Source: Chondrosia reniformis
Taxonomy: Eukaryota; Porifera; Demospongiae; Chondrillida; Chondrillidae
Assembly (NCBI GenBank): GCA_947172415.1
Contig: OX359194.1
Location: 6,268,401 to 6,332,400, forward strand
Length of the DNA: 64,000 nucleotides
Direction of reading: 5' to 3'
Both the position numbers and the translations under genes were made by a program. Below are positions 406 through 44,797 of the stretch, one piece after another (positions within the stretch are counted from its first letter, which is position 1; every line of letters starts with the position of its first letter). The notes under the pieces were generated by a model. The model was given only the letters and a program-made list of their open reading frames with translations. It made no database searches and was not told where the DNA came from.

Positions 406-3400
406 ATGAACCACCTAATCAAAACTCTGGTGGTTTTCATCTCAGTCTGTTGGACTGTAACTGAGCAACAAACTATAAATTGTAGTAAGTCTTTACTTAA
501 CAGATATTACATGCACATAAACTTGTTTGTGGCTTTAATAAAATTTGTGTATACTACATGTATATATGGCTAATGTGGTTTAGACCATTCTATAACTTTT
601 GCACAAGGATACGATAATGCCTAAACTACAAAATGTCCTTTTAATTAGTTACAAAAGTTACAAAATGGTACGTATAAAGCCAAGTAAGCCATATTTGTAC
701 TTCTTATATACTCAAACGTTATGGTCTTATATTAGTATTATTATTATTGTTGTTGATTTAAGTGCATCATGTGCTGGACGCACACTATAGGGCTACATTG
801 CCCCATGTAGCACTGTACAAAGAGTAATGAAACATACATTTGGATGGATAAACACAATCCTTATAGCTTCTATATAATTCATCCCCTCCCAACAACCCTA
901 TCTTGAGCTCGAAATCTTCCCTGAGAGAATTGTTTATTCATGATCAGCCTCTGAATTCTCCAAAATCTATGGTTCCATTTTGACTCCAATTCCATCAGCA
1001 GTTCCTCCTTTCCTTTGAGCTCAAACCACCAAATACGTATATGTTCAGTATTATTATTTTAATATATATTATGGACAGTTGAGCTTTTCCTTTACTAAAC
1101 ATGCATGTATCCCTCTCACATCTTAATTACCATCATTTCCTTTAATACATTAATATATGTAATTAAAAATTAAAATTTAACAATTAGAATTAAAAAACAT
1201 ACATATATACAAAATGTTATCCTTTTATCCTTTACAGCCATTACAGATTTCACAGCCGAACCTCTCCCTAGTAACACACAGATGGAACAAGTGACAGTTA
1301 TGCTCCAATGGATGGATCAGCCTAATGCTACCTACAATCTCATTTATTATGAGACTATGAACTCTTCTGATGATAGAACCATTGATAACATAACCACACC
1401 CTACAATGTTACCAACTTGACAGCTTGTACAACCTATATCTTTGAACTCACTGTATTTAATGATACCGGTATGCCCTGTCCCAATAATCCAACGATTATG
1501 CATGAAACAGCCTTAAATGGTAAGTATATTATCAAAAACAAATTTGAGACTTATACTTATAGTTATAACTGTTATATTAACTGTAGCATGAAAAATGAAG
1601 GACTACTTTAAATTGCTTTATATATATAGTGAGATAAATAATTAAGTTTTAATTCTAAAGTACGTATATTAATGCCTCTTAAATACGTATACCTTATGAA
1701 CAGTTGAAAATGGTAAGATTAGCGTCTTTAAAATAATACTTTCAGAACCTTAAAAATTATTGATGATACATAATGATGACTGTATTCTTGTAGATCCACT
1801 GGATGTCTCCATTGACTCACCACCTAATGATCCTGTTGAAAGGACAGTAGGTACTAGTGTTACATTGAATTGTACATGGGACTCTACAGCCTACTATTTT
1901 GGCTGGTACAAGGATGGCAGTCTGGTCTATGCACTGGATCTTGCTTCCGGTGAAGTGTTAAATAACACACTGAATGCTACGTCATCTTATGAGGGTAGGT
2001 ATTCAGAGTTGACCATCCCTGGTTCTAGTCTCGCTGATAGTGGTAACTACACCTGTGTTGTGAGTTGTGAAGCTAGAGATATGGCATTTGATGATATACC
2101 TGGAACACTGGAGGACTCAAAGGAAGTCTGTTTCTTTGGTAAGTCATACTGCTAGAATGACTTTTGAAAAGTTTGATTCTGAAGTGAATATCCTTTACAG
2201 CTGTTCCAGTTAACATTACTGGTCTTGAAATATCCATTCCCGCTGATGACCAAATGCCTGTGACAGCCATGATCACTTGGGATGCATTGTCTGGTAGCGA
2301 CCAAACTGGTATATCTGATGGATGTGCTGACACAGTGGAATACAATTTGACCATTTGTGATGTGAATGATACAATTGTCCATCAAATGACTTATTTGGAT
2401 GCCATGGCAACAGTGTACAATTTAGCATCCTGCAGCAACTACACAGCAAAGGTGCTGGCTGTCAATATACTCCAAAATGGATGGACTGCACAGAGAGAAT
2501 TTGAAACAGTTGAAAATGGTAAGATTGCCAACTTTTAATATACATAATTTCAGAAAGTTAAACTTTATTGATGATACAACATGATGATTGTATTCTTGTA
2601 GACCCAGTGACAGTCTCCATTGTCTCACCATCTGATGATCCTGTTGAAAGGACAGTAGGTACTAGTGTTACATTGAATTGTGCATGGTACCCTACAGCCT
2701 ACTATTTAGGCTGGTACAAGGATGGCAGTCTGGTCTATGCACTGGATCTTGCTTCCGGTGAAGTGTTAAATAACACACTGAATGCTACGTCATCTTATGA
2801 GGGTAGGTATTCAGAGTTGACCATCCCTGGTTCTAGTCTCGCTGATAGTGGTAACTACACCTGTGTTGTGAGTTGTGAAGCTAGAGATATGGCAGTTGAT
2901 GATATACCTGAAGCACTGAAGGACTCAAAAGAAGTCTGTTTCTATGGTAAGCCATACTGCTAAAATATCTTTTGAAAAGTTTGATTCTGAAGTGAATATC
3001 CTTTACAGCCGTTCCAGTTAACATTACTGGTCTTGAAATATCCATTCCCGCTGATGACCAAATGCCTGTGACAGCCATGATCACTTGGGATGCATTGTCT
3101 GGTAGCGACCAAACTGGTATATCTGATGGATGTGCTGACACAGTGGAATACAATTTGACCATTTGTGACATGGATGATACAATTGTCCATCAAATGACTT
3201 ATTCGGATGCCATGGCAACAGTGTACAATTTAGCATCCTGCAGCAACTACACAGCAAAGGTGCTGGCTGTCAATAAACTCCAAAATGGATGGACTGCACA
3301 GAGAGAATTTGAAACAGTTGAAAATGGTAAGATTGCCAACTTTTAATATACATAATTTCAGAAAGTTAAACTTTATTGATGATACAACATGATGACTGTA

Positions 3401-6400
3401 TTCTTGTAGACTCAGTGACAGTCTCCATTGTCTCACCACCTAATGATCCTGTTGAAAGGACAGTAGGTACTAGTGTTACATTGAATTGTACATGGGACTC
3501 TACAGCCTACTATTTTGGCTGGTACAAGGATGGCAGTCTGGTCTATGCAATGGATCTTGCTTCCGGTGAAGTGTTAAATAACACACTGAGTGCTACGTCA
3601 TCTTATGAGGGTAGGTATTCAGAGTTGACCATCCCTGGTTCTAGTCTCGCTGATAGTGGTAACTACACCTGTGTTGTGAGTTGTGAAGCTAGAGATATGG
3701 CAGTTGATGATATACCAGGAGCACTGAAGGACTCAAAAGAAGTCTGTTTCTATGGTAAGCCATACTGCTAAAATGTCTTTTGAAAAGTTTGATTCTGAAG
3801 TGAATATCCTTTACAGCCGTTCCAGTTAACATTACTGGTCTTGAAATATCCATTCCCGCTGATGACCAAATGCCTGTGACAGCCATGATCCCTTGGGATG
3901 CATTGTCTGGTAGCGACCAAACTGGTATATCTGATGGATGTGCTGACACAGTGGAATACAATTTGACCATTTGTGACATGGATGATACAATTGTCCATCA
4001 AATGACTTATTCGGATGCCATGGCAACAGTGTACAATTTAGCATCCTGCAGCAACTACACAGCAAAGGTGCTGGCTGTCAATAAACTCCAAAATGGATGG
4101 ACTGCACAGAGAGAATTTGAAACAGTTGAAAATGGTAAGATTGCCAACTTTTAATATACGTAATTTCAGAAAGTTAAACTTTATTGATGATACAACATGA
4201 TGACTGTATTCTTGTAGACTCAGTGACAGTCTCCATTGACTCACCACCTAATGATCCTGTTGAAAGGACAGTAGGTACTAGTGTTACATTGAATTGTACA
4301 TGGGACTCTACAGCCTACTATTTTGGCTGGTACAAGGATGGCATTCTGGTCTATGCACTGGATCTAGCTTCCGGTGAAGTGTTAAATAACACACTGAGTG
4401 CTACGTCATCTTACGAGGGTAGGTATTCAGAGTTGACCATCCCTGGTTCTAATCTCGCTGATAGTGGTAACTACACCTGTGTTGTGAGTTGTGAAGCTAG
4501 AGATATGGCAGTTGATGATATACCAGGAGCACTGAAGGACTCAAAAGAAGTCTGTTTCTATGGTAAGCCATACTGCTAAAATATCTTTTGAAAAGTTTGA
4601 TTCTGAAGTGAATATCCTTTACAGCCGTTCCAGTTAACATTACTGGTCTTGAAATATCCATTCCCGCTGATGACCAAATGCCTGTGACAGCCATGATCAC
4701 TTGGGATGCATTGTCTGGTAGCGACCAAACTGGTATATCTGATGGATGTGCTGACACAGTGGAATACAATTTGACCATTTGTGACATGGATGATACAATT
4801 GTCCATCAAATGACTTATTCGGATGCCATGGCAACAGTGTACAATTTAGCATCCTGCAGCAACTACACAGCAACGGTGCTGGCTGTCAATAAACTCCAAA
4901 ATGGATGGACTGCACAGAGAGAATTTGAAACAGTTGAAAATGGTAAGATTGCCAACTTTTAATATACATAATTTCAGAAAGTTAAACTTTATTGATGATA
5001 CAACATGATGACTGTATTCTTGTAGACTCAGTGACAGTCTCCATTGACTCACCACCTAATGATCCTGTTGAAAGGACAGTAGGTACTAGTGTTACATTGA
5101 ATTGTACATGGGACTCTACAGCCTACTATTTTGGCTGGTACAAGGATGGCAGTCTGGTCTATGCAATGGATCTTGCTTCCGGTGAAGTGTTAAATAACAC
5201 ACTGAGTGCTACGTCATCTTATGAGGGTAGGTATTCAGAGTTGACCATCCCTGGTTCTAATCTCGCTGATAGTGGTAACTACACCTGTGTTGTGAGTTGT
5301 GAAGCTAGAGATATGGCAGTTGATGATATACCTGAAGCACTGAAGGACTCAAAAGAAGTCTGTTTCTATGGTAAGCCATACTGCTAAAATATCTTTTGAA
5401 AAGTTTGATTCTGAAGTGAATATCCTTTACAGCCGTTCCAGTTAACATTACTGGTCTTGAAATATCCATTCCCGCTGATGACCAAATGCCTGTGACAGCC
5501 ATGATCACTTGGGATGCATTGTCTGGTAGCGACCAAACTGGTATATCTGATGGATGTGCTGACACAGTGGAATACAATTTGACCATTTGTGACATGGATG
5601 ATACAATTGTCCATCGAATGACTTATTCGGATGCCATGGCAACAGTGTACAATTTAGCATCCTGCAGCAACTACACAGCAACGGTGCTGGCTGTCAATAA
5701 ACTCCAAAATGGATGGACTGCACAGAGAGAATTTGAAACAGTTGAAAATGGTAAGATTGCCAACTTTTAATATACGTAATTTCAGAAAGTTAAACTTTAT
5801 TGATGAAACAACATGATGACTGTATTCTTGTAGACTCAGTGACAGTCTCCATTGACTCACCACCTAATGATCCTGTTGAAAGGACAGTAGGTACTAGTGT
5901 TACATTGAATTGTACATGGGACTCTACAGCCTACTATTTTGGCTGGTACAAGGATGGCAGTCTGGTCTATGCACTGGATCTAGCTTCCGGTGAAGTGTTA
6001 AATAACACACTGAGTGCTACGTCATCTTACGAGGGTAGGTATTCAGAGTTGACCATCCCTGGTTCTAATCTCGCTGATAGTGGTAACTACACCTGTGTTG
6101 TGAGTTGTGAAGCTAGAGATATGGCAGTTGATGATATACCAGGAGCACTGAAGGACTCAAAAGAAGTCTGTTTCTATGGTAAGCCATACTGCTAAAATAT
6201 CTTTTGAAAAGTTTGATTCTGAAGTGAATATCCTTTACAGCCGTTCCAGTTAACATTACTGGTCTTGAAATATCCATTCCCGCTGATGACCAAATGCCTG
6301 TGACAGCCATGATCACTTGGGATGCATTGTCTGGTAGCGACCAAACTGGTATATCTGATGGATGTGCTGACACAGTGGAATACAATTTGACCATTTGTGA

Positions 6401-9400
6401 CATGGATGATACAATTGTCCATCGAATGACTTATTCGGATGCCATGGCAACAGTGTACAATTTAGCATCCTGCAGCAACTACACAGCAACGGTGCTGGCT
6501 GTCAATAAACTCCAAAATGGATGGACTGCACAGAGAGAATTTGAAACAGTTGAAAATGGTAAGATTGCCAACTTTTAATATACGTAATTTCAGAAAGTTA
6601 AACTTTATTGATGATACAACATGATGACTGTATTCTTGTAGACTCAGTGACAGTCTCCATTGACTCACCACCTAATGATCCTGTTGAAAGGACAGTAGGT
6701 ACTAGTGTTACATTGAATTGTACATGGGACTCTACAGCCTACTATTTTGGCTGGTACAAGGATGGCAGTCTGGTCTATGCAATGGATCTTGCTTCCGGTG
6801 AAGTGTTAAATAACACACTGAGTGCTACGTCATCTTATGAGGGTAGGTATTCAGAGTTGACCATCCCTGGTTCTAGTCTCGCTGATAGTGGTAACTACAC
6901 CTGTGTTATGAGTTGTGAAGCTAGAGATATGGCAGTTGATGATATACCTGAAGCACTGAAGGACTCAAAAGAAGTCTGTTTCTATGGTAAGCCATACTGC
7001 TAAAATATCTTTTGAAAAGTTTGATTCTGAAGTGAATATCCTTTACAGCCGTTCCAGTTAACATTACTGGTCTTGAAATATCCATTCCCGCTGATGACCA
7101 AATGCCTGTGACAGCCATGATCACTTGGGATGCATTGTCTGGTAGCGACCAAACTGGTATATCTGATGGATGTGCTGACACAGTGGAATACAATTTGACC
7201 ATTTGTGACATGGATGATACAATTGTCCATCGAATGACTTATTCGGATGCCATGGCAACAGTGTACAATTTAGCATCCTGCAGCAACTACACAGCAAAGG
7301 TGCTGGCTGTCAATAAACTCCAAAATGGATGGACTGCACAGAGAGAATTTGAAACAGTTGAAAATGGTAAGATTGCCAACTTTTAATATACGTAATTTCA
7401 GAAAGTTAAACTTTATTGATGATACAACATGATGACTGTATTCTTGTAGACTCAGTGACAGTCTCCATTGTCTCACCACCTAATGATCCTGTTGAAAGGA
7501 CAGTAGGTACTAGTGTTACATTGAATTGTACATGGGACTCTACAGCCTACTATTTTGGCTGGTACAAGGATGGCATTCTGGTCTATGCAATGGATCTTGC
7601 TTCCAGTAAAGTGTTAAATAACACACTGAGTGCTACGTCATCTTATGAGGGTAGGTATTCAGAGTTGACCATCCCTGGTTCTAGTCTCGCTGATAGTGGT
7701 AACTACACCTGTGTTGTGAGTTGTGAAGCTAGAGATATGGTATTTGATTATAAACCTGAAGCACTGAAGGACTCAAAGGAAGTTCTGTTATACGGTGAGA
7801 ATTTTAATATATAAATTCTTGCATACAGTGTACGTACCATTGCCATGTTTGTCTGTACAGGTGTACCTGAAACTGTTGAAGGTTTAACTGCTAAAGTTGT
7901 TGATGGATCTCCAGAAGTAAAAGTCCTTGTTCAATGGAGCAAACTCCTCCCCAATGAGACTGGTATACCAGTTGGAGGGAGTACCTCTCTGGTATACACT
8001 GTTAGGGTATCCTATATGGGAGCTACTCCACTGGAGATGGCAGTGATGGAGTCTGAAGCTACATTTGATAATCTACCTGCTTGTGAAAATCTAACAATAT
8101 CTGTAACAGCTAGCAACACATTGCAAGTGTCTACATCTACTGAAGTTGTTTTTACTACAAATGAAATGGGTAAATACATGCTATATATAATTATATTTTC
8201 CTACGAGCTAAATCAAGGAGAATTTATGTTTGTACATTTAGGAGAAATTGTATATAAAGATGTTAAACCTAGTTTGTTTACCTAAGTGCCTGCATCTTAC
8301 AAATTCTAATTAAGCAGTTGTATTTTCCTTTTAAGTTGCACTTTTTGCTAATGTGAGATGTTACATCTGTGTATAAACTTGATGAACATGCTTCTTTCTT
8401 ATTTAATGTAGCACTACCAACTAAAATCAATATATCTCCAAATAGCAGTGTGTCTGCATGTCCTAAGGATAGTCCTACTTTGACATGTACTTCTGATGAA
8501 CCTGTATTCTATATAGCATGGTTCTATAATGGAAGTCCCATATATGGGAAAAATCTAATCTCTATGACAACTGATATGATGGATGGCAGAGTGTCTGCAA
8601 ATAGTACTTCAACTTCATTAACTATTCCATCAGTCATGAATGAAGATGCTGGAGGGTACATATGTGCCTTCAGTTGTAGAACAGCTGCCCTTGATCTAAC
8701 TCAGATACCTCAGGATCTACGGGAACAGGTCACAGTGACTGTGAAAGGTGCTGATAATTGTTACTGTTATATATGTATGTACGTATGTATATGTATACGT
8801 ACGTATGTTTGTATTTTAATTTTTACAACTGACTAAACAAGCTATAACCAATATGGCATTAACTATAGTGTGTCTCCACCACAGATACCTCAATATCAGT
8901 GGTTGGAGAGAGCTCAAGGCTTTATGGAAATGGTGACACTATTCAGTTGGAATGTAATTACTCTGATGATTTGATGTTCATTGGATGGTGGAAAGATGGA
9001 GAAATGATAGCTAATTCCTCTTTTATGATGCTGGAGATATCAAATGTTAGCAGAAACAACTCTGGAGTTTACGAGTGTAGAGCAATTTGTACCAGTGATT
9101 TCACTGGAGAAGCTCCAGAAGTTTATATGGACAATGTGACTGTGACAGTAGTTGGTAAGTGTGATTGTTGATGACGGTAGGTTCTTTTAAATTTATATAC
9201 GTACCTGTTGCCATTCACACAATGTGCTGATAATGGGGATTAGGTACCATATAGTGAAGAAAATCCTACGCTTTGGTTTTAATTTGTTGCTGGTGGTTTC
9301 TTTAGTCAGAGATGCAAATTTCATGTATTTCTTCTCTTTATAAGCTATATTGGTCCTGGTCTGGCAGAATGCTGTGACAATGGACTATATACATATCCAA

Positions 9401-12400
9401 AACAGTTATAAAGTCCATTGTCTAGGACTTTCACTGAAATCTTATTCCTCAGCTATATATTACACTTGCCTCTGGGTTATATATATATAACTATTACATA
9501 TTTCAAAGATACGTAAATATATCCTGTATATTATGCTAACCAGCCAAGTGACCACAGTCTTATGTTGGCTATAGTCAGCATATCTTTAAGTAACGTTTTC
9601 ATCATATAGTCTTTGCACAGGTTTGTGCAATTAACTCGATTGGTTTATATTGTACGTACGTATATATATTTAATAGCAAAATATACTGTATCTCCCACAG
9701 AGCCACCTAGCAAGCCTATGATATTGTCCTGCAATGAAAGTCTTGGGATTGACACTTCAACTATTCGATGGGATATGCCAACTGATTTTGGAAATGATCT
9801 GAATATCACGTTTGACATCAACATCCTGGCTAAGCCAATGTTACCACAAAATATCATCTCAGCTACTATACCTGCCAATGCAAGTGGTCTCACTAACACC
9901 TCTCATCCCTTTACTGGCCTGCAACCATACACTGTTTATCGTGTCTTTGTGTCAGCAGTAAACAGGCTAAGGGAAAGTGATGCAAGTATCTGTCAGTTTA
10001 GAACTTTGGAAAATGGTAATTAACAGAAATTGCAAAATATAATATTATGTAATTGTGTGAGTACATTTAGGTATACAGTCCCATAATTACCTATTGAAGC
10101 ATAGTAATACCTTTTCCTCAATACATATATTATGGAAACAGTCAATATACGTACTGAATGATGGAGTGTTTGATTATCCATATATACATATTATATTATG
10201 TGTATCTACGTATATATGTATACAAGTCAAATATTGTGATGTACATATATATAGACAATCATATTTTATTTACCTATATAGCACCACTTTAGTCACAGAT
10301 GCAAATCTCATGTATTTCTTCTCTTTATAAGCCATATTGGTCCTATAGCTAGTCTGGCAGAATGCTGTGACAATGTACTATATACATATATAAAACAATT
10401 ATAAAGTCCGTCATCTTGGACTGTCACTGAATTCTTACGTATATTCCCCAACTATAGCCCTTGTCTCTGTCTCTGGGTGTCTCTGGGTTATATATAACTA
10501 TATTATGTATATTATAACTAGTATAGTATAGTATATTATAACTACGTATTACATATATTACATATATGTAATACGTAGTTATATATATGTATATGAAATA
10601 GTGAATAATCACTGGATTCAAAGATATTTACTGTATATTATGCTAACAATCCAAGTGACCACAGTTTTATCTCAGCTATAAGGCAGCATATAATTCACTT
10701 CATTTAACCTAGGAATAGAAATACCAAGGATAGTTTCTAATAACGGAACGTCTGTCTCAGTTAGCAGAGATGATTCCATAGTCCTCTCCTTCTCCATCAC
10801 ACAAGCCATGCCTCCAGTCTCACCTGACGACATTGTGTGGACAATAACAAACAGCAGTGGTACATTTGACTTAGGAAGTGGTGAAGGAGATAATTATGTG
10901 TTTTCTGAAGACAGACTCACATTGAGGATACAAAGGGCCAGAAGAGTAGATGCAGGGACATACAGTGTTGATGCTAGCAATGCGGTTGGAACAGCTTCAG
11001 CTGAGATTACCCTCATGGTCACTGGAGGTACATACCACTGGTTATGCTTTATTGCAATATTCATAACATGGAACTACATGTATACCTTATTCCCACAATA
11101 TATAAATAGCCATGAAAAATCTAAGATACCATTTTCCTACATGCTATGCCTATTCTGTAAAAGAGCCTATAGAGGAACTAAACCTGAAGAGAGCTTTGGA
11201 TGAAGATACAGGAGTCTTTTCTTCCTTCTTTTCCCTTCTTTCATCTTCTTCTCCACTGGGTCAGACAACCGTTTCTGGGAATTCCACCCATCATCAGTGA
11301 TCCTGGGAGTCTTTGTCTTTTTCTTTATCTTGATCTTCTGTGAATCCTTGGCTATATCATATATATCATATCATATCCTATCATATCCTATATCATTTGT
11401 TATACAGTATCCCCTCAAGTAACCACTCCTCTGAGGAACACAACTGTTGTGGAAGGCCAAAGTCTCATCTTAACATGTGCTGCAGTGGCGGACCCTAGCC
11501 CAGTGTTTGTGTGGAGATTTAGAGGAGAAAGGATCTCTGCTATCGCTAACAAGTATGAGATTGTCAGTAACAATAGTGTCAGTACATTGACAGTTGTTGG
11601 AGTTGGGGGAAGTGATGAGGGAGACTACAACTGTTCAGTTTCCAACAGATTTGGTCCAGACAGCACATCAGCTTTCATTACCATACTGGGTATAGTTCTG
11701 TCATACATACATACATACATATGTACGTACATACATATATATATTACACAGTGTCTCTTTATTTACATATATATAGGAAATAAATGTGAAAGAGAATACA
11801 CAGTACATGCATGGTTTCTTTACCTGCTTGTTTGTAACTGTACAATTTTGGGTTAATTATTTATTTCTTATGCAATACCAGGTCCACCAACATTCTTGAT
11901 GACACCTTCTGAGATTCGTGATGTTGTTGAGGGAGAAGTCCTGACTGTAGAATGCCAGGCCATTTCCAATCCACCTCCATCAATAATCTGGATGAAGGAG
12001 AGCTCTATCCTAAATATCGGTACATCTGAAAGTGTTCAAGACAGAGTTGCAATAGGCAGATTAATGATAAGCAACTTAAGCTTAAGTGATGCTGGAGAAT
12101 ATTCATGTGTTGCTATGAATGAGATCGGAAACACATCATCTCCTACATTCACTGTAAATATAGTAGGTCAGTTAGAGCATGTACAAAACATCTGAGGTAC
12201 CGGGACTTGATTCTCACTTTGATTATAAATAGATTTATGTAATAGATTTACCCAGCTGTCCTATGGTTGATGTGGCCAGCAACCAGCTGGTTAAGATGGC
12301 CCCTCCCACTGGAAATGGGCTGGGTCACTGTTTATCAGCTTGTTCTGAAAACACCACTAATTAATGTGAATTCATCATATTTATGCTTAGCATGTACTGT

Positions 12401-15400
12401 ATGTATACACATACGTATGTACATATACGTATATACAGTGTATTTTAGTATTTTAATCATCCTCTTCAGTGAGACCAACTATTTCAGTTATAAGAGAAGC
12501 TTTTGATACTGTTTTTCATGATGGTCAACTGGAAAGGGAGGAAGGATCTACTATCACTCTCCAATGCACAGCTAGTGGACTACCTCAACCTTCCATACAA
12601 TGGTTGAGAAATGAAGCTATACTACAAGGAGATGGAACACGCGTGACAGTTACATCCACCCCTGATTCTGAAAATGGTGATGGTATCTTGAATAGAACCA
12701 GCTCCTTACATTTTACCAGACTGCAGTTAAGTGATGCTGCACAGTACTCCTGTAGAGCAGTGAGTGGATTTGTGGCTCCCATTATTGGTCAAAATGTGTG
12801 GCAATTTGATCTTTTGGTAAAAGGTGAGATCACAGAATGGTATTCCTATATAGAGTAAATATAAACTACCAATAATGTGGGGAGTATGCCTTTACGTATG
12901 TGTACAGGTGTTGTAGAATTTATCTCTATTATGTATTTACAATATGCGTGCGTACAGTACATACTGTATATCCTCATATATTTGTATATGGATACAATAG
13001 ATATATATATATACGTACATTATCATGAGTATACTAATTTATGAGACTCAGCAACAATTGTATTTAAAAACAAATTGAACGTTTCGACCCGGAGGTCTTC
13101 ATCAGCATAATCATACATTATCATATACATACGTATATATATTAAACTGGTAGATCTCCAAGTAGCCTTGTCAGTAGCTAGGGTTATCAGGGTTTTAATG
13201 TGAACCTTTAAAATGTTATTATAGCCTTTAATAACTGTGATTCTGGTCCATGTCAAAATGGAGGCAGCTGTATTGATGGAATTGATGACTTTACTTGTAT
13301 GTGTACTGCCTTTTCAAGTGGATACTATGCAGGGAAAACATGTTCTGAAGGTAAACAAGTTTATATATACTTATGTCTTTAGATTGTAGAGGTGTTGTGC
13401 ATTTATATACTTCATAAAGCTGTATTTTATATATATATACCACACTGTGATTATCTAATATATAGAATTTATTTTATAGACTTTCTCTATGTATGTACGT
13501 ACGTATACGTATGTATATTCGTAGTATTATTTCAAGGAAATTGTGGATATTAATGTTGATTTCATTGTAGAGGTCATTGAAAATACTCCACCTGTAATCA
13601 CTGAAGATCCAGAAGACAAAGATGTAGCTCTGTATAGTTCAGTAACTCTATCTTGTTTGGCAGAAGGCAACCCTGAGCCCCTTATTCAGTGGTACATAGA
13701 TGATAAGCCTTTAAATGTGTTTGGCCAAGCGTATACAATCAGTTCTGTTCAACCAAATGACAGAGGATTTTACCACTGTAAAGCCATCAGTATAGCATTT
13801 AGTGACATAGTTGATTCAAAGCCTGCATTAATCTTGATTAAAGGTACGTACGTACACCTGTACATATCAATATGGAATGTGAACATACATATGTACGTAT
13901 ATAGTGAAAATTAATACTTTATTGATGTACGTATGTATATATGTTTTATATTTGAAGGACTTATTCAGCAGACAGTTACTATTGACTTGTCCCGTAGAAG
14001 GAGAAGGCAGGACAGTGAATACAGTAGTTTTATAGAAGAAGTGGGTTCATTGGTATTGTAAGTACATACATAATATGATAATATATATACGTACGTATGG
14101 GTACTGTACATTATTTACCTACAGTATATATATGTATGTAGTCAAATTAATGTATACACTCCATGTATATATGTACAAGTAAATAAAAAACATTTACAAA
14201 AATGATGTTAGAAGTAGAAATGGCAGTGTTCACTAATACATCTGCAAAAAGCATCGAAACAAGACACTGATTATATGATAAGGCTAATCATACAGAAGTT
14301 GCATATATACTGAAATTTAAGTAACTTAACCATACACTTCTGTGTTTGGGCGCACTAACCTTAAGTAGGAATGGTGCGCCCAAACACAGAAGTGTATGGT
14401 TAAGTTACTTAAATTTCAGTATATATGCAACTTCTGTATGATTAGCCTTATCATATAATCAGTGTCTTGTTTCGATGCTTTTTGCAGATGTATTAGTGAA
14501 CACTGCCATTTCTACTTCTAACATCATTTTTGTAAATGTTTTTTATTTACTTGTATTCCCCCTTTTTTCCTCTTAATATTACTTGTTTTAAATTGATTTG
14601 AAAGTTTTCTTGGCGAAGATCTCAAAATAACGTCTTAGACAAGAGAAATCTGCCGAAAACCATGATCTCTTAATTAAAAAATGGCGTCCGAGAAGACCAC
14701 AATTTTCGCTCTTCACAATTAACATGCTTATTGTAGAGCGCATTCAGATTTAGGGCTGTCTATTCCCTAGTTCCGAAATATTTATGACGATTTATAACTA
14801 GTACGTGCCCGCACAAGTTCGCATATTAGCGCTAGTCTATTCAATAAAAGAAGAAGAAGAAGAAGAAGAAAAAATGAATTTTGGAAGTGGGTCTATTCCT
14901 AGTTAGCCGCTTTTTGAACGCTATAGAGCGTGTAGAGCGTCGAAACATGTTTTGGCATTTAGGAAAGCGTGCATTAATCGCTGCAAATAACCGAATATAA
15001 CCGAAAATCGCTTCGTTGGCGATTTATTAGGTGTTGATTGCTAATACATTGGATAGGGCGGCCATTTTTTTTTCCGGCCATTCCTGCTTAGAGAGTACTA
15101 CCGTACTCTCTGATATGCATATTAATATACAGCTATGTACTGTATATCCGTAGCTTGATTATACATCTTAATCTCAGGTCAATGCTCTCTTATCTGGTAT
15201 GGAGCTTACACTTCAGAGTGGCAATGGTACTCTGAAATCAGAGATAATAAGTGTTTCTTCTCTACCTGATGCTCCTGATAACATTCTTCTAGTGACCACT
15301 GTCACTGACACAGATCAGTCCACGGAAATCCCCCAGTTGTCCACTCTACTGGCAGCACCGCTGCAAGAGGTCGTCCAGGAAGCATCTCAAGTCATCAACC

Positions 15401-18400
15401 AACCATTTCAAGTGTCTCAAATTGTTAGATTTGGTAGGTTTATGTTCAAGATGTATGTATATACGTACCTACCTATACGTAGGTATAGGTAGGTAGATAC
15501 ATAGATGCATATCTGTGTATATACATATATACATATACATGTAGATGGTTGTCCAGCTGAAGAAACTTTGTGTGGAAACATCGGTGGTGTTTATTGGCCA
15601 GAGACGGAGATAGGTGGGGAATCCAGGCAACCATGTCCATGTGGTGTTAGCTCCACAACATTTGAAGATCTTGATTTGGTAGCCACAAGAGAATGCAGAG
15701 GAGATTTTGAAACTGGTGCAAAATGGAGTAGTCCAGAATGTTCTAACTGCAACTTAACAGGAGTGACCAGAGCTTTGTGTGAACTTGTCAATGTAAGACA
15801 AGTTTATATAATTAATTTAATCCTTCTTCCAATATTTAATTAAATTAAATAAGCTCCTTCATATACATAATAGCTATTTATATAAAGTCTCCATGGTTAC
15901 ATTGACCTATATGTTGGTGAGTTCTCCTCCATTAACTACATGTGTCACAGTTTGGGCAGCTCTATATACTGTACATCTATACCTCCTACCTTATAGATAT
16001 ACGTATATACACTTATATATACGTACCTATTGTACACAATTATTAATATTACATATAGATGTGCAACCTCAGTTGAATAACTTGAATACTCCAAATATAT
16101 AGACATCCAGTAAAATGGCAGCTTTAAGTGTATTTAATGGTTAATTTGATTTCTCTGCCACTATGGCGACATTTTAAAGGGTAACTGTACCTATTGGAGC
16201 AATTTGTCAACTCAATAGAGTCTTTTGTTATGATTTTAAGCTTGAAAGTTGTTAACATTTTAAGACACCATTTTCTTTGATATACAGCTATTACCTCTTC
16301 AATGTCAGGAATGTGAGAATGACAATATGCATACTGTAATAAGCCACTCACACTTCGGCCAATAAGGTTGTATATACCTACACAATCATGCATATGCTCA
16401 ACATTCTCTTTTTAGATTGACAATGGAGCTCAGTTGGCCAGTGCTTTAGTAACAGTTACAGAAAACACAGAGGAACTGAGAACTGAAGATCTTGCTTTGA
16501 GTGCCGATCTCTTGGAAGTTATTCCTACCTCAGAGGTTCAAGGAGATGAGAGAGTAAGCTTGAGATTTTATTTTATACTCATCATGCTACCTGTAATTCA
16601 TGCAACTCATCTAATATTGACATACGTACATACATACTTATCCAACATTTCAAACATAATACATACGTATATATATATTGTGAAAAATCAGGACATTATC
16701 ACTAAATGTTTTTATATAAAAAAGGTGTATTAAACATTATTATATACTATTCTAGTGTACATTTACTGCATGTGTGTATGTACTAGTTATTACATGCCAT
16801 TGTGAGCGTGTAATAAGTGGTTTATCGCTAAATTAATCGCTTACTTCTTTGTTTGATCTTTGTAAGTACTGATTGATTTGCAATTAGTGGTGTTTGTGTT
16901 GCTAGCCATGCCTATATTGAAGATGCGTGGGGGCTGTTCTGCCTTAAAGCCATATAAGGAGGTGTTAGGGGCGCTTATGTGTTTCTGGCAGTGCTGGTAA
17001 CCCGTTTACCTGCACACCTTTCCCTTTGATGTATGACGTCATCATGCAATAAGCTGTATTATTCATAGGAGATTGTGCAATACCAAATGTTTAGCTATAT
17101 ACTATTTACTAATGGTTTACCTAACTTCAATATACATATACGTATATCATCTATAAAAGGTGACCTTAGATATACTGGGAACAGTAGATCAGTTGGCTAG
17201 TGCACCACAAGAATCAATTAGAGCAAGTCAACAAAGTACAAATTCCTCATCAAGGTATATACATATACATACGTATATGGCATGTGCCCTTTTTCTTAAA
17301 GGAAAATATCCATTTTGATGATATGTGTGTTTATGAACCTCTTCTACAAATATATCTACTCAAGCACTTATTTTTCATCTCTCAGATTACTAGATATTCT
17401 TCAGACAGTCACTGAAAATGTTCCATTGGAGGAAAATGGAACTTTACAGTTTTTTGGAGAATCCTTTGGTCTTCAAGTACAGGCAGTAATGGTTGATCCC
17501 GAGACACCCCTAGTACCAGACCTGTCCAGCATTGCTGACAGCATTGCTAATAACTCTAACATGAGGCCTCCCTTAGCCAACATAGCTCTACCGGGATCAG
17601 CCATTCCCAACAGTACTGCACTCCGTGTCTCAGCTGCCCTGTACACTAATGCCACACTATTCCAACAAAGCAGTAGCTCTCTGCTTTTCTCAAATGAAAC
17701 AGAAGTGGGAAGTGTAGTGGTTTCATTGTCTATCTTTGGAAATGGACAAGAAATATCTGATTTGGAGGAGGCTGTGACAATTACTTTGGGAATAATGAAT
17801 CAGGTATAACAAAATGTTTGGAAAAAATAGGGAAACTTTAAGATCTAAGGCCGATCTTAAAGCATTGATATCATCATCATTAAACTCTGGATATTACCCC
17901 TGCCCACTCATGTCTCCTGAGGAGTGCAATGAGCTAATGGGTGGAACTGAAGTTTGCTTGATGAGAACCAGAGTCTCCCCTAGCCACTCAAAAAGATGGT
18001 TGAGACATAGACAGCCCCATTACGCTCCTTAGGTGACATGAGTGGGCAGGGGTAATATCCAGAGTTCAATGATGATGAAAACAAAATATTTATGTAGTTG
18101 CTAATGTTCATGCATACATCTTACTTTTTATCTCTTTCCCTGTATGCATACGTATATAGACCATTAACTATATATGAATATTTATATATAAATCATTCTT
18201 TAGGGTTATTTTCCAAGGTGTGCATTTTGGAACTTTTCTTTGGATCGTACGTATACATAGATTTATAATGATACTTATATATACGTATATATATATACAG
18301 TATATCAATACATTTACTATATGTATATGGAATTGATTAATCTTGTACACTATATATACAGTATATACAAGTCCAGGGAGACATTCTATACTGTATATAC

Positions 18401-21277
18401 ACATTCCTTGTATTCTTTTAGGTAACTTTGGTGCTTGGGACAATTCTGGTTGTGATCTTATTAATTCAACAAATAACTATATTGTTTGTGAATGTGATCA
18501 CTTGACTAACTTTGCAATTCTTTTGGTATGTTTTATCTGAAATGGCAGCTACTTAGAATTGGATCATTTTCAGCTATTCCTTGCATTTATAGTTTAACAG
18601 TTAATGCGTTACAAATATTTCAAAGAAACAGTTGAAAATGATCCAATTTTTCAATAGCTACTATATGTAAGTCTTTTAGCAGATGCTGCAGCTGATAATA
18701 CACCTACTATTTATACACATTATACTGTATAGTCTATTGTTGGTATTTTATACATGTTATACTGTATAGTCTATTGTTGGTATTTTATATTATACTTTAG
18801 GATATTTTTCCAGATGTACCGGGACCGCCTGATGATCTTACATTGCAGAACCAGTTCCTGACAGCTGTATCATACATTGGAACAAGTATATCCATCATTT
18901 GCCTTATTCTAACAATAGTACCTTATTTAGCAGACAAGTAAGCTAAAACATTGCATACGCACATATACATATAAGTAAATCATGAATAATTGAAGTGATT
19001 GAAGAAACCGCACACATCACAATAACTCTACACTCTACAGAGACATCATGCAACCATCCTGTAATGATGCAGCTAAATATTACTTGCAGAGATATACATA
19101 TTGAATCACTTAATCAATCAATCAATAAATCAGTATAGACATACGTATATCTCCTAGACAGGAGATCATCCTTAAAAGAAATAGGAAGTAGAAGTAAAAA
19201 CAGTTCACATGAACCATTTAAAATTGTCTATCCACCTCCTTTCCTTGGTCTTCCTCGAGGCCATTTTCCTTCCACCTTTCCTTTAAACACTCTACTTACA
19301 CAACTTCCACTATTTATTACTTACATTTCAATATAATAATAGCTACCTACGTATGTACACGTTTATGGTTAACTTATCACATAAACACTGTAGCTGTCTT
19401 ATTTTGATTTTTGGATTTTTTTATTTATAATTGGTATGTATAAAAGTCACTATGCAGCTCTCTCTTTTACTGAACTACATGGATGTGCAGTATACAATAA
19501 TCACAGAAATGCTTCAATCATTTTTCATCATTCAGTAGTTTAATACTCTAACCAGCTGCACCTCAGTTACCTTACCTATCATTTCCTGTGGGAGGAGTCA
19601 TATAACGCATGAAAAATCTAAGATACCATTTTCCTACATGCTATGCCTATTCTGTAAAAAGAGCCTATAGGGGAACTAAACCTGAAGAGAGCTTTAGATG
19701 AAGATACAGGAGTATTTTCTTCCTTCTTTTCCCTTCTTTCATCTTCTTCTCCACTGGGTCAAACAGCCGTTTCTGGGAATTCCACCCTTCATCAGTGATC
19801 CTGGGAGTCTTTGTCTTTTTCTTTATCTTGATCTTCTGTGAATCCTCATATATATCCTGAAATCCTGTATATCCTATATATATATATATATCCTGTGAAT
19901 CCTCATATATATATAATACATCACATATAACACACATGCATATTCCACCTTAATGTTTTCCACTTAGGACACTTCGACAAGGAATCCACAGACAGCTCCT
20001 GATTAATCTCTGTGTAGCTCTCACAGGGTTGTATGCTACCTTCATAGTCAGCACCTTCTCAATGGCAGTGTGGCAGTGGTGCATTGTTATATCTGCTTTA
20101 ATGCAGTACTTCTTTCTGGCTACCTTCTTCTGGATGACTGCAGAGGCTATCAATCTGTATCGAAAACTGGTTCAAGTGTTCAAACCTGATATCAAAAACT
20201 ATATAGCTATTGCCATGGCAACATGCTGGGGTGAGATGGATTATATTTGAGAATACTACATTTGTTAGCATTTTAACATTATACGCCATAATGCATCATT
20301 CCATATTTTAAACTTTCAGTTGTTCCAGTCTTCATAGTAGCATTCTCCTTAGCTCCAAGATATCAGAACTACTTCCATCAGAACTTGTAAGTTTATTGTG
20401 CATATACACACATATATACAATGCTTTTACGTACGTATATATAGGATTTATAAACCCTAGTTTTCTGAGTTGTATATATTTCAAATCCCTTTTAATACTC
20501 CACTTTAGCTGTCGTGTTTATGATTACTCCTTCTACTTTGGAGTGATTATCCCTTTTGGACTGGTCTACATCTTCAACTGGGTCACCTTCATTCTCATAA
20601 TGGTCTTTCTGTCTTCAAGACCCAACTTAAAGAAGGAAGGCAGCAAGAAGGCCAACTATCGCAAGCTGAAAGAGAACCTGTGGGTTGCTATGGGACTGTC
20701 GGTACTCTTTGGACTGGGATGGGGTATTGGACTCCTAGCCACCACAGGACTGCCTTCATTTATTAATATAATCTTTGAATGGGCATTCACAATAATGACA
20801 GCATTTCAAGGATTAATCATATTCATTCTCTACTGCTTGAGAGCAGCTGAAGCGAGGAAGGTCTGGAAGAGGATTCTGTGCTGTGAGAGCAAGAGACATA
20901 AACATTCATTGGAGCCAAGTAGCAGTGGATGGACTGGTACGCTAGCTACAAAGATTACCACTCTAGGAAGACGTACTTCACGATCCCTTGCCAAAAGGTT
21001 TACTGCAAAGAAGACATCTATAAATGGATCAACAGAAACTGGTCAAATTATATCAAATCCTTCTATTCAGGAGAGTAAGACAGAGCCAAGCTCTTTCAAG
21101 TTTGTATCAGAGCAAACAAGTAGCCACCAAAGCCATCAGGATTCCCAGCAGTTTCTGTTTCAAAGTGTAGATATACATCTGCAACCAACTGCGACTGAAA
21201 AGGGTAATACCATGGCTCAAAAGGATTTGTGTTCATTTGATGAAAACATACAAATACAAGTAGAGGATCCTATGTAA
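406..21277 (+). CDS. Adhesion GPCR with giant Ig/FN3 ectodomain, EGF, HormR, GAIN/GPS, 7TM
   Basis: Multi-exon surface receptor of about 3614 aa. Exon 1 (406-484) encodes a signal peptide (MNHLIKTLVVFISVCW). FN3: 1238-1519. Then Ig exons 1794-2138 plus 808n (n=0-7) alternate with FN3 exons 2201-2518 plus 808n (n=0-6). These are followed by FN3 7861-8169; Ig 8412-8747 and 8885-9154; FN3 9701-10015; Ig 10713-11027, 11408-11689, 11882-12166 and 12470-12823; EGF-like 13225-13350 (six Cys); and Ig 13571-13843. All these domain exons are phase 1-1. Next come an unassigned, possibly SEA-like segment (13958-14052, 15178-15433), a Cys-rich HormR-like exon (15545-15792) and GAIN exons (16416-16553, 17160-17254, 17386-17803). 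The GPS is split over 18204-18246 and 18422-18525, with CDHL|TNFAILL predicting cleavage after about residue 3196 and a tethered agonist. 7TM exons: 18801-18937, 19968-20230, 20320-20386 and 20509-21277; TM7 carries FQGLIIFILYC, typical of adhesion GPCRs. The tail is Ser/Thr-rich. The 14052/15178 junction is uncertain: the strong donor at 14058 is out of phase, whereas GT at 14053 is in phase. Confidence 0.9.
1794..7794 (+). repeat. Tandem array of 808-bp Ig+FN3 exon-pair units (7 full plus an eighth Ig exon)
   Basis: The unit is an Ig exon (345 bp), a 62-bp intron, an FN3 exon (318 bp) and an 83-bp intron. Ig exons start at 1794, 2602, 3410, 4218, 5026, 5834, 6642 and 7450, exactly 808 bp apart, so there are no net indels even in the introns. 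Copies differ by scattered substitutions: LVYALD/LVYAMD, SSLADS/SNLADS, IPGALK/IPEALK, HQM/HRM, AKV/ATV. The first and last units are the most diverged; the eighth Ig ends differently and is followed by a divergent FN3 exon at 7861. Every exon is phase 1-1, so unit gain or loss keeps the reading frame. Ig cores show Cys...W-Y-K-D...D-S-G-N-Y-T-C. Confidence 0.97.
9303..9590 (+). repeat. Intronic segment duplicated at about 10293-10700
   Basis: The intron before the FN3 exon at 9701 and the intron before the Ig exon at 10713 share an extended, moderately diverged sequence. Shared stretches include ATGCAAATnTCATGTATTTC, CTGGCAGAATGCTGTGACAA and CCAAGTGACCACAGT, in the same order. This suggests an old exon-plus-intron duplication about 1 kb apart, independent of the young 808-bp array. 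Confidence 0.75.
11111..11352 (+). mobile_element. Dispersed ~200-240-bp repeat family, copy 1
   Basis: Non-coding interspersed repeat inside a GPCR intron. The core runs from AAAATCTAAGATACCATTTT through CCTATAGAGGAACTAAACC, a CT-rich tract and CCACTGGGTCAGACA to GATCCTGGGAGTCTTTGTC. Eleven copies or fragments occur in the window in both orientations. I see no ORF. SINE-like or MITE-like is an inference: termini and target-site duplications were not resolved. Confidence 0.8.
14174..14555. repeat. Perfect 182-bp inverted repeat (long hairpin)
   Basis: Arms 14174-14355 and 14374-14555 are reverse complements over their whole length as read, around an 18-bp spacer. Inner ends are GGGCGCAC and GTGCGCCC. 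It lies in a GPCR intron. One arm's sequence recurs in diverged form at about 35930-36090, so it belongs to a dispersed element rather than to the gene. Confidence 0.93.
14880..15116. mobile_element. MITE-like element remnant sharing its terminus with 36105-36254
   Basis: The stretch from AACATGTTTTGGCATTTAG to a terminal palindrome (AGAGAGTAC..GTACTCTCT) recurs at 36105-36254, and the same palindromic end recurs at about 55772-55793. At the 35930-36254 copy the hairpin-arm sequence and this terminus are contiguous. The 14174-15116 block may therefore be one composite element. Confidence 0.65.
16740..17100. other. Intron between GAIN exons, no gene seen
   Basis: Part of the intron 16554-17159. 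It contains a less AT-rich block (about 16895-17040) that reads like an old interspersed insertion, but no second copy was found in the window. No coding or RNA signature was recognised. Confidence 0.4.
17866..18078. repeat. Inverted repeat with ~55-bp arms in the intron before the GPS
   Basis: The left arm (about 17866-17923, containing CTGGATATTACCCCTGCCCA) is nearly the reverse complement of the right arm (about 18027-18078), with about 100 bp between. A diverged relative lies at about 28920-29080 in the phosphatase gene. It is probably a small foldback or MITE copy. Confidence 0.75.
18558..18660. repeat. Short inverted repeat in the GPCR intron
   Basis: TTGGATCATTTTCAGCT near the left end pairs with AGTTGAAAATGATCCAA near the right end, giving a foldback with an AT-rich loop in the intron between the GPS and TM1 exons. 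Just downstream, a unit of about 35 bp containing ATACTGTATAGTCTATTGTT is duplicated in tandem (about 18720-18790). Confidence 0.6.
19609..19858 (+). mobile_element. Dispersed repeat family, copy 2
   Basis: Near full-length copy, closely similar to the one at 11111, in the intron between the TM1 and TM2-3 exons of the GPCR. It is followed by an AT-rich microsatellite. Confidence 0.8.
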
Positions 21278-44725: not shown

Positions 44726-44797
44726 CTTTATTCTTGGTGGTAACGTTTTTCGTTACTTTCCGTTATTGCTAACGTGCGACGCGGGAAAGGCAGCAAT
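44726..44797. promoter_or_regulatory. 72-bp bidirectional HDAC3/POLE2 promoter with an E2F-like site
   Basis: Only 72 bp lie between the HDAC3 ATG (minus) and the POLE2 ATG (plus). GCGGGAAA at 44781-44788 matches the E2F consensus (reverse complement TTTCCCGC). There are also two short inverted repeats, GTAACG..CGTTAC (44740-44756) and CGTTA..TAACG (44761-44774). No TATA box is present. Promoter function is inferred from the geometry and the motif. Confidence 0.6.

What the first reader, a model, noticed from the sequence alone, without database searches (positions are those of the whole stretch)
1794..7794. Freshly homogenised Ig+FN3 exon-pair array in an adhesion GPCR
Seven consecutive units are exactly 808 bp with no net indels in either intron, and differ by only scattered substitutions. 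This implies very recent amplification or continuing unequal exchange/gene conversion. All exons are phase 1-1, so individuals could differ in domain number without a frameshift. A cell-surface receptor with a copy-number-variable, near-identical Ig array is a natural candidate for a self/non-self or adhesion-diversity receptor. The array is seen directly; the function is inference.
Basis: partly seen in the sequence, partly recalled or inferred. Interest (0 to 1): 0.88.

Follow-up and report, generated by a model that had tools for sequence, protein, structure and literature searches.

The report
Sponge receptor with near-identical Ig repeats
A sponge cell-surface receptor carries seven almost identical immunoglobulin-plus-fibronectin units, and its sister genes carry different numbers of them, which makes this a good place to look for how sponges might vary their cell recognition, although no such role has been shown.

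Summary
The window lies in a 117,379,552-base genome in 15 contigs, which fits the kidney sponge Chondrosia reniformis. Window 406-21277 models as one open 39-exon, 3,614-aa adhesion GPCR. Its seven 808-bp Ig+FN3 units differ by 3-30 of 808 bases, the inner five by 3-11, with signs of exchange between units. Neighbouring paralogues have 5, 9 and 7 units. The last one is a chimera: this gene's outer part, identical save 3 intronic bases in 15.4 kb, on another paralogue's 7TM end. A search found 14 genes with this GAIN-7TM tail. The six ectodomains that I read keep the membrane-proximal part; five, E being a copy of F, carry a homogenised array, Ig+FN3 or FN3+FN3. Between paralogues D and F, pN/pS is 0.87 in array Ig, 0.54 in array FN3 and 0.10 in the 7TM. 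Most likely: an adhesion or recognition receptor whose outer half turns over by unequal exchange. Allorecognition is possible but untested, and regular Ig/FN3 arrays also lie away from 7TM hits.

The parts
406..21277 (+). gene F: adhesion GPCR, 39 exons, 3,614 aa
   Evidence: spliced model translates with one terminal stop; Pfam Ig, fn3, EGF, GPS, 7tm_2
406..484 (+). exon 1, signal-peptide-like start
   Evidence: signal peptide judged by eye
1238..1519 (+). first FN3 exon, before the array
1794..2601 (+). unit 1: Ig 1794-2138, intron, FN3 2201-2518, intron
   Evidence: 27-30 of 808 differences to the other six units
2602..3409 (+). unit 2: Ig 2602-2946, FN3 3009-3326
3410..4217 (+). unit 3: Ig 3410-3754, FN3 3817-4134
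4218..5025 (+). unit 4: Ig 4218-4562, FN3 4625-4942; near-copy of unit 6 (3 differences)
5026..5833 (+). unit 5: Ig 5026-5370, FN3 5433-5750; near-copy of unit 7 (4 differences)
5834..6641 (+). unit 6: Ig 5834-6178, FN3 6241-6558
6642..7449 (+). unit 7: Ig 6642-6986, FN3 7049-7366
7450..7794 (+). eighth Ig exon of the array (half unit)
7861..8169 (+). FN3 exon after the array, not homogenised with it
   Evidence: 30% identical to the array FN3
8412..10015 (+). distal single-copy exons Ig a (8412-8747), Ig b (8885-9154), FN3 c (9701-10015)
   Evidence: distal single exons pooled, pN/pS 0.88 against paralogue D
10713..13843 (+). constant cassette: Ig d, e, f, g, EGF (13225-13350), Ig h
   Evidence: 78-97% identical in C8 gene 1, 81-96% in C8 gene 2 and 55-77% in the C9 gene, whose distal parts are unlike this one's
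13958..15433 (+). linker and pre-GAIN exons
   Evidence: the exon end at 14052 (donor GTATTG) is the least certain of the model
15545..15792 (+). HRM-like cysteine-rich exon
   Evidence: Pfam HRM 21.7 bits, below its 26.2 cut-off
16416..18525 (+). GAIN exons and GPS (18422-18525) with an HLT motif
   Evidence: GPS 1.3e-15; GAIN-7TM best solved relative ADGRG6, 1.3e-48
18801..21277 (+). 7TM domain and cytoplasmic tail
   Evidence: 7tm_2 2.5e-28; pN/pS 0.10 between D and F

Best explanation
This is one member of a sponge adhesion-GPCR subfamily with a constant membrane-proximal and signalling part (five Ig, EGF, HRM-like, GAIN/GPS, 7TM) and a fast-changing distal ectodomain. In this gene the distal part contains an Ig+FN3 exon-pair array. 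Misaligned recombination between units adds, removes and mixes units in steps of one or two. Because all array exons are phase 1-1, any change in unit number stays in frame, so the result is a receptor of different length and mosaic sequence with the same signalling end. Shown here: an intact gene model, the array, site patterns that fit exchange between units, unit-number differences between paralogues, a chimeric duplicate from a 24-kb tandem event, and strong constraint on the 7TM beside weak constraint on the distal part. Inferred: that the protein is made and cleaved at the GPS, that the distal part binds other cells or matrix, that individuals differ in unit number, and that length or mosaic changes alter binding or signalling.
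For: Gene model with one stop; Pfam GPS and 7tm_2; exact 808-bp units with 3-30 differences; minimum exchanges 7/4/13 in F/C/D (73); tree in which the D units form one clade (100/100) while F1 groups with C1, C2 and C5 (95/99) and not with the other F units; unit counts C 5, D 9, E 7, F 7 and, by position, C9 paralogues 6, 6, 1 and 9 plus a part; E has F's head and D's tail, with 3 mismatches in 23,590 bases between the two segment copies; constant cassette with distal parts unlike F's on C8 and C9; pN/pS between D and F: array Ig 0.87, array FN3 0.54, distal single exons 0.88, constant Ig and EGF 0.38, HRM/GAIN/GPS 0.19, 7TM and tail 0.10.
Against: No RNA, protein or second individual was seen. 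pN/pS near 1 also fits relaxed constraint, and no test of significance was made. Variable residues are not enriched in CDR-like loops. C8 gene 2 has the constant cassette but no array at lags up to 3,000. Paralogue C has open array exons but lacks the cassette, so an array can sit in a gene that may be broken. Regular Ig/FN3 arrays also occur away from 7tm_2 hits. Against C8 gene 1 the 7TM end is less constrained, pN/pS 0.54.
Confidence: 0.62

Rival explanations
1. Allorecognition receptor: unit number and unit mosaic are polymorphic between individuals and set self/non-self specificity, for example by homophilic binding of like arrays.
For: Distal Ig pN/pS 0.87-1.17 and distal single exons 0.78-1.20 beside a 7TM at 0.10; unit number varies between paralogues; gene-level chimera; V-set-like Ig, matched to TCR V-alpha chains at 7.4e-7. 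The Podospora hnwd genes are a known non-self system with homogenised, number-variable repeats (PMC2873952, passages).
Against: No population data. No CDR-loop enrichment (58). The main text of the Amphimedon graft transcriptome paper holds 0 occurrences of GPCR, G protein-coupled or immunoglobulin (PMC5450542, 55).
Confidence: 0.18
2. Microbe-facing receptor: the distal ectodomain diversifies against pathogens or symbionts.
For: Same selection and turnover evidence (21, 46, 73). An adhesion GPCR of the sponge Aplysina aerophoba is up-regulated by microbial patterns (PMC6208332, passages).
Against: That gene is latrophilin-like by its authors' tree, and its relation to this subfamily was not tested; no binding or expression data for this gene.
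Confidence: 0.2
3. Spacer or adhesive stalk: the array only sets reach and avidity. Repeats drift in number because tandem near-identical exons recombine, and the near-neutral pN/pS is relaxed constraint.
For: pN is about equal to pS in the array Ig (F 0.0285 and 0.0281; introns 0.0215 and 0.0138); no loop enrichment; similar regular arrays in other Ig/FN3 regions.
Against: FN3 units keep constraint between genes (0.54-0.60, 21). In D and F the Ig exons diverge more than either intron (21). Residue 30 of the Ig, in the putative BC loop, has five states in 24 exons (58), more than a passive spacer needs.
Confidence: 0.33
4. Assembly artefact: the E/F duplication, or part of the unit count, is a graph or haplotype error.
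For: The two segment copies differ by 3 bases in 23,590 (77), while reads average about 12.9 kb (10.31 Gb / 0.80 M, passages, 10), so few reads can span the identical stretch.
Against: A 6-kb array fits in one read of that length; units carry distinct variants; arrays with other unit counts stand at C, D and A (17), in C8 gene 1 and in the C9 genes; the E tail matches D, not F (17, 46), which a simple haplotype duplicate would not give.
Confidence: 0.12
5. Dscam-like mutually exclusive splicing: only one or a few units enter each mRNA.
For: Tandem phase 1-1 exon pairs (16).
Against: Units are nearly identical, so choosing among them yields little diversity; each unit is two exons; the 21 compared units keep GT donors and AG acceptors, save one Ig acceptor in D (21).
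Confidence: 0.03

Closest known systems
Sponge adhesion GPCRs with Ig, fn3, EGF and HRM domains (Amphimedon queenslandica, PMC4302439; passages and section 8 read)
   Same: Same classes of ectodomain modules, GPS and 7tm_2; the authors say that most of the family groups in sponge-specific clusters.
   Different: The parts I read report no homogenised exon arrays, no variation in array unit number and no constant/variable split; SRCR repeats in two receptors are the only repeats mentioned there.
Podospora anserina hnwd allorecognition genes (PMC2873952, passages)
   Same: Variable number of near-identical repeat units, concerted evolution within and between loci, one constant effector part.
   Different: Fungal, intracellular (recalled), WD40 repeats; population polymorphism, function and four positively selected positions are reported there, none of them shown here.
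Vertebrate ADGRG6 and other solved adhesion GPCRs
   Same: GAIN-GPS-7TM region, E 1.3e-48 to ADGRG6.
   Different: The human receptors are not known to carry homogenised Ig+FN3 arrays (recalled).
Arthropod Dscam (PMC3236188, start of abstract in the listing)
   Same: Tandem duplicated Ig exons in a receptor.
   Different: Dscam exons are spliced mutually exclusively and are diverse; here units are near-identical and probably all included.
Hydractinia Alr and Botryllus fuhc/fester (listing only; otherwise recalled)
   Same: Polymorphic animal recognition loci; Alr is Ig-based (recalled).
   Different: Not adhesion GPCRs, and their alleles are defined by sequence, with function tested (recalled).

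Membership tests
Adhesion GPCR (class B2) | 7tm_2 seven-helix domain | tested here: met
   Pfam 2.5e-28, 99.5 bits against a cut-off of 20.6
Adhesion GPCR (class B2) | GPS motif | tested here: met
   Pfam GPS 1.3e-15; HLT at the expected cleavage site, read by eye
Adhesion GPCR (class B2) | GAIN domain | tested here: inconclusive
   No Pfam GAIN model reached its cut-off (GPR128 GAIN subdomain A at E 0.38), but sequence search aligns the region to ADGRG6 and ADGRG2 from part of GAIN to 7TM
Adhesion GPCR (class B2) | Long ectodomain of adhesion modules | tested here: met
   Ig, fn3 and EGF over cut-off
Adhesion GPCR (class B2) | Self-cleavage at the GPS | not testable with these tools
   needs expressed protein
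HRM-containing subset | HRM domain | tested here: inconclusive
   21.7 bits, cut-off 26.2
Allorecognition receptor | High polymorphism between individuals | not testable with these tools
   one haplotype of one specimen
Allorecognition receptor | Genotype decides fusion or rejection | not testable with these tools
   needs grafts
Allorecognition receptor | Diversifying selection on the binding surface | tested here: inconclusive
   Ig pN/pS about 1; no CDR-loop enrichment, P = 0.36; no structure obtained
Dscam-type splicing array | Mutually exclusive use of diverse tandem exons | tested here: not met
   diversity condition fails: units differ by 3-30 of 808 bases; splicing itself not tested

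The most novel reading that the evidence does not exclude
A germline diversity system built on adhesion GPCRs: a constant GAIN-7TM cassette carries distal Ig/FN3 exon-pair arrays whose unit number and mosaic sequence are reshuffled by unequal exchange fast enough to differ between individuals, and this array genotype is a sponge self/non-self specificity.
Probability: 0.15. Interest if true: 0.92.

Novelty: new variant of a known kind. Interest (0 to 1): 0.64.

Why it matters
The receptors behind sponge graft rejection are not agreed: the Amphimedon graft study saw no significant enrichment of cell-adhesion or aggregation-factor genes, unlike earlier reports that it cites (PMC5450542, passages). 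Here is a compact set of loci, readable with long reads, in which a signalling receptor keeps its inner half and keeps rebuilding its outer half. If unit number differs between individuals, it gives a direct test of recognition in an early animal lineage and an animal counterpart to the repeat-shuffling non-self genes of fungi. If not, it is still a clean case of how tandem domain exons are homogenised in a gene under strong constraint elsewhere. The terms adhesion GPCR and allorecognition occur together in 3 papers of the library searched, none of them on this idea by its listing.

Tried and rejected
Dscam-like splicing was set aside because near-identical units give little to choose from. 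CDR-like hypervariability was tested on 24 Ig exons with loops that I placed by homology and eye: 16 of 33 loop sites vary against 14.6 expected, P = 0.36, so it is not claimed; the high pN over pS in the BC loop and A strands rests on few synonymous changes and was not tested for significance. A phage-collection search was empty, as expected. The FN3 unit has no relative among solved structures at E up to 0.01. A paper search on Chondrosia and allogeneic responses found nothing relevant in the listing, and one on number-variable Ig exons, asking for four of five terms, returned no paper. Array A (18 Ig exons, 15 of them at a spacing of about 828 bp, minus strand) has no cassette exon in the sequence I hold, and C loses homology to D after 6205752; I do not claim either as a working receptor. 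The heterozygosity figure of about 1.5% in the full report is my own arithmetic from the paper's k-mer completeness values with an assumed k of 21, and is rough. The pN/pS values pool non-independent pairs and carry no test. In one search I used hand-picked positions only: 63 of the 150 fn3 rows and 44 of the 150 Ig rows, chosen because they lay close together; those two searches themselves scored 150 of 2,147 and 150 of 972 candidates.
Full report
SOURCE. The window is G000:C6:6268401-6332400 of a genome of 117,379,552 bases in 15 contigs. Contig 6 has 8,731,016 bases. This fits Chondrosia reniformis: 117.37 Mb, 14 chromosomes plus a mitochondrial genome, chromosome 6 of 8.73 Mb (PMC12181767; listing, passages). 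The species name is my inference.

OBSERVATION. At lag 808 the stretch 1501-7000 is 94.7% identical to itself, against 23-27% at the other 16 lags tested from 800 to 816. Seven units of exactly 808 bp are followed by an eighth Ig exon. The 21 unit pairs differ by 3-30 bases; the 10 pairs among units 3-7 by 3-11, mean 7.6 of 808 or 0.94%. Units 4 and 6 differ by 3 bases and units 5 and 7 by 4, which fits a two-unit step; in the unit tree the 4-6 pair has support 98/94 and the 5-7 pair 87/71. As a rough scale, the paper's k-mer completeness (primary 69.43%, alternate 74.54%, combined 93.73%) implies about 1.5% difference between the specimen's two haplotypes if k is 21 (my arithmetic). Inner units are therefore about as alike as two alleles, or more so.

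GENE. Exons joined by splice sites give 39 exons and 3,614 aa with one stop. Pfam gives Ig, fn3, EGF, GPS and 7tm_2 over their cut-offs. An HRM-like exon stays below its cut-off. GAIN to 7TM aligns best to ADGRG6 among solved structures, E 1.3e-48. All array exons are phase 1-1. By sequence the array Ig is V-set-like: titin (1.1e-7) and TCR V-alpha chains (7.4e-7) lead 73 matches at E up to 0.01 in the Protein Data Bank.

NEIGHBOURS. At E up to 0.001 the Ig+FN3 unit matches only between 6.09 and 6.28 Mb of the same chromosome, apart from two weak hits (28-30% identity) at C8:6.79 Mb. Exon search of 6.07-6.33 Mb, of which 25 kb reads N, finds C (5 units plus Ig, no cassette found), D (9 plus Ig, whole), E (7 plus Ig, whole), F (this gene), a degenerate minus-strand set B, and A (minus strand, 18 Ig exons, 15 of them at about 828-bp spacing, no cassette found in the held sequence). 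E equals F in protein from its head through the HRM-like exon and equals D in the 7TM part. Compared at an offset of 24,372 bases, the two copies of the segment differ at 3 positions in the 23,590 bases from 6236832 to 6260421; the 3 lie together at 6253284-6253289, in an intron. Of this, 15,387 bases are E's head against F's. The simplest origin is unequal crossing over between the GAIN regions of D and F, making E a chimera. C loses homology to D after 6205752. In D one Ig acceptor reads AC for AG.

EXCHANGE. Among informative sites, pairs with all four combinations number 35 of 78 in F, 47 of 276 in C and 393 of 1,596 in D; the minimum number of exchanges is 7, 4 and 13. Recurrent mutation can mimic part of this. 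In a tree of 21 units the D units form one clade (100/100), the C and F units another, and within it F1 joins C1, C2 and C5 (95/99); the other F units and C3-C4 fall outside that group, with C3-C4, F4-F6 and F5-F7 as pairs and the rest unresolved. So at least two unit types probably predate the split of C and F, and each gene then rearranged its own array.

SELECTION. pN/pS of array Ig within genes is 1.01 (C), 0.85 (D) and 1.01 (F); array FN3 0.47, 2.18 and 1.27; between genes Ig 0.87-1.17 and FN3 0.54-0.60. Within F the Ig exons have pS 0.0281 and pN 0.0285, the introns 0.0215 and 0.0138; in D the Ig also exceeds both introns, in C it lies between them. Between D and F the rest of the gene gives distal single exons 0.88, constant Ig and EGF 0.38, HRM/GAIN/GPS 0.19, 7TM and tail 0.10. 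C against F gives 1.20 and C against D 0.78 for the distal single exons. Against C8 gene 1 the F values are 0.38, 0.42 and 0.54 for the three inner parts, so the 7TM end is less constrained at that distance. The D-F contrast still shows that these are not dead genes: the signalling end is constrained while the outer end is hardly so. Whether the outer end is relaxed or positively selected is open. Of 115 Ig positions 51 vary among 24 exons; CDR-like loops are not enriched (16 of 33 sites, P = 0.36); position 30 has five residues.

SUBFAMILY. The GAIN-7TM tail search scored 82 of 182 candidates and shows 14 places for the main GAIN exon (35-100% identical) and 14 for TM5-7 (49-95% in the listed stretches): three on C6, four at C8:6.77-6.85 Mb, four at C9:4.55-4.65 Mb, two on C7 and one at C8:4.34 Mb. 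I read six of the 14 ectodomains, or part of them: D, E and F, two on C8 and one on C9. C8 gene 1 keeps the cassette (Ig d 97%, Ig h 78%, TM2-4 95%), but its outer part is unlike F's and holds an FN3+FN3 array of 794-bp units: three full units and two parts in the DNA search. C8 gene 2 keeps the cassette, with about seven outer FN3 by eye and no array at lags up to 3,000, though a second copy of its FN3 set lies about 5.8 kb upstream. The C9 gene keeps the cassette at 55-77% and has an FN3+FN3 array of 744-bp units. The C8 and C9 units are about 70% alike in DNA, so they are one kind of array homogenised separately. Positions give six units in that C9 gene; assigning others to the next tail downstream, six and one in two further genes, nine and a part in the last, and a pair at 4566758 that I could not assign. 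The query unit matches its own gene's other units at 96-97% (91% for the last) and other genes' units at 89-92%. So five of six ectodomains read have a homogenised array (four of five if E, a near-copy of F, is not counted apart), of two kinds.

CONTROL. Regular arrays are not confined to this subfamily. Among the best-scoring fn3 and Ig hits I see FN3 hits every 672-678 bp at C8:1.68 Mb and Ig hits every 914-937 bp at C6:8.12-8.17 Mb (on hand-picked rows), with no 7tm_2 hit listed near them (95 matches, 150 of 153 candidates scored). Their sequence was not read, so whether they are homogenised is unknown. This weakens the argument from array to function, though it may make array turnover a wider trait of this genome's Ig/FN3 genes.

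KNOWN. Sponge adhesion GPCRs with Ig, fn3, EGF and HRM are in print (PMC4302439, passages and section 8), so the receptor kind is known. The nearest match in way of evolving is the Podospora hnwd family, with number-variable near-identical repeats under concerted evolution and a reported role in non-self recognition (PMC2873952, passages). Works-like and is-a must stay apart: unit-number change between paralogues and exchange are seen here, while population polymorphism and function are untested.

VERDICT. Observation confirmed and extended. Best reading: an adhesion or recognition receptor with a constant signalling half and an outer half rebuilt by unequal exchange. Allorecognition is a fair but unproven candidate role.

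Noticed in passing
G000:C6:6090333-6105892 (L011-L012): Array A: 18 Ig exons with FN3 partners on the minus strand, 15 at about 828-bp spacing, 58-74% identical in protein to this unit, with no 7TM cassette in the held sequence.
   Followed up: partly
G000:C6:6244434-6265212 against 6268806-6289674: Paralogue E is a chimera of F's head (3 mismatches in 15,387 bases) and D's tail, from a 24,372-bp tandem event.
   Followed up: yes
G000:C8:1680520-1693999; G000:C6:8123056-8126738 and 8145867-8166999: Other regularly spaced FN3 (about 674 bp) and Ig (about 930 bp) exons with no 7tm_2 hit listed near them; sequence not read.
   Followed up: partly
G000:C6:6070001-6082398 (L009-L010): At least 12.4 kb of a tandem array of a roughly 30-bp unit, cut by the end of the fetched stretch (self-matches step by 30).
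   Followed up: no
G000:C6:6084081-6089182, minus: Two similar ORFs of tectonin-type lectins; the one at 6084081-6084839 matches Pfam Tectonin at 3.9e-58.
   Followed up: partly
G000:C8:6801343-6802224 and 6825796-6827175, minus: Long ORFs of a 26-aa Ser/Thr-rich repeat upstream of two C8 FN3 clusters.
   Followed up: no
window 14174-14355 and 14374-14555: Perfect inverted repeat, 182-nt arms with 18 nt between, inside an intron of the gene, like a short mobile element.
   Followed up: partly
window 11159-11358 and 19657-19856: The same 200-nt element, 95% identical, in two introns of the gene; similar ORF fragments appear near array A and on C8.
   Followed up: partly
window 25774-26274: 12-bp repeat, 33 copies, open in frames on both strands.
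   Followed up: no
window 38006-39265 (-) and 44744-46375 (+): ORFs of a sulfotransferase (Pfam 3.2e-15) and of DNA polymerase epsilon subunit B type (6.9e-50).
   Followed up: partly
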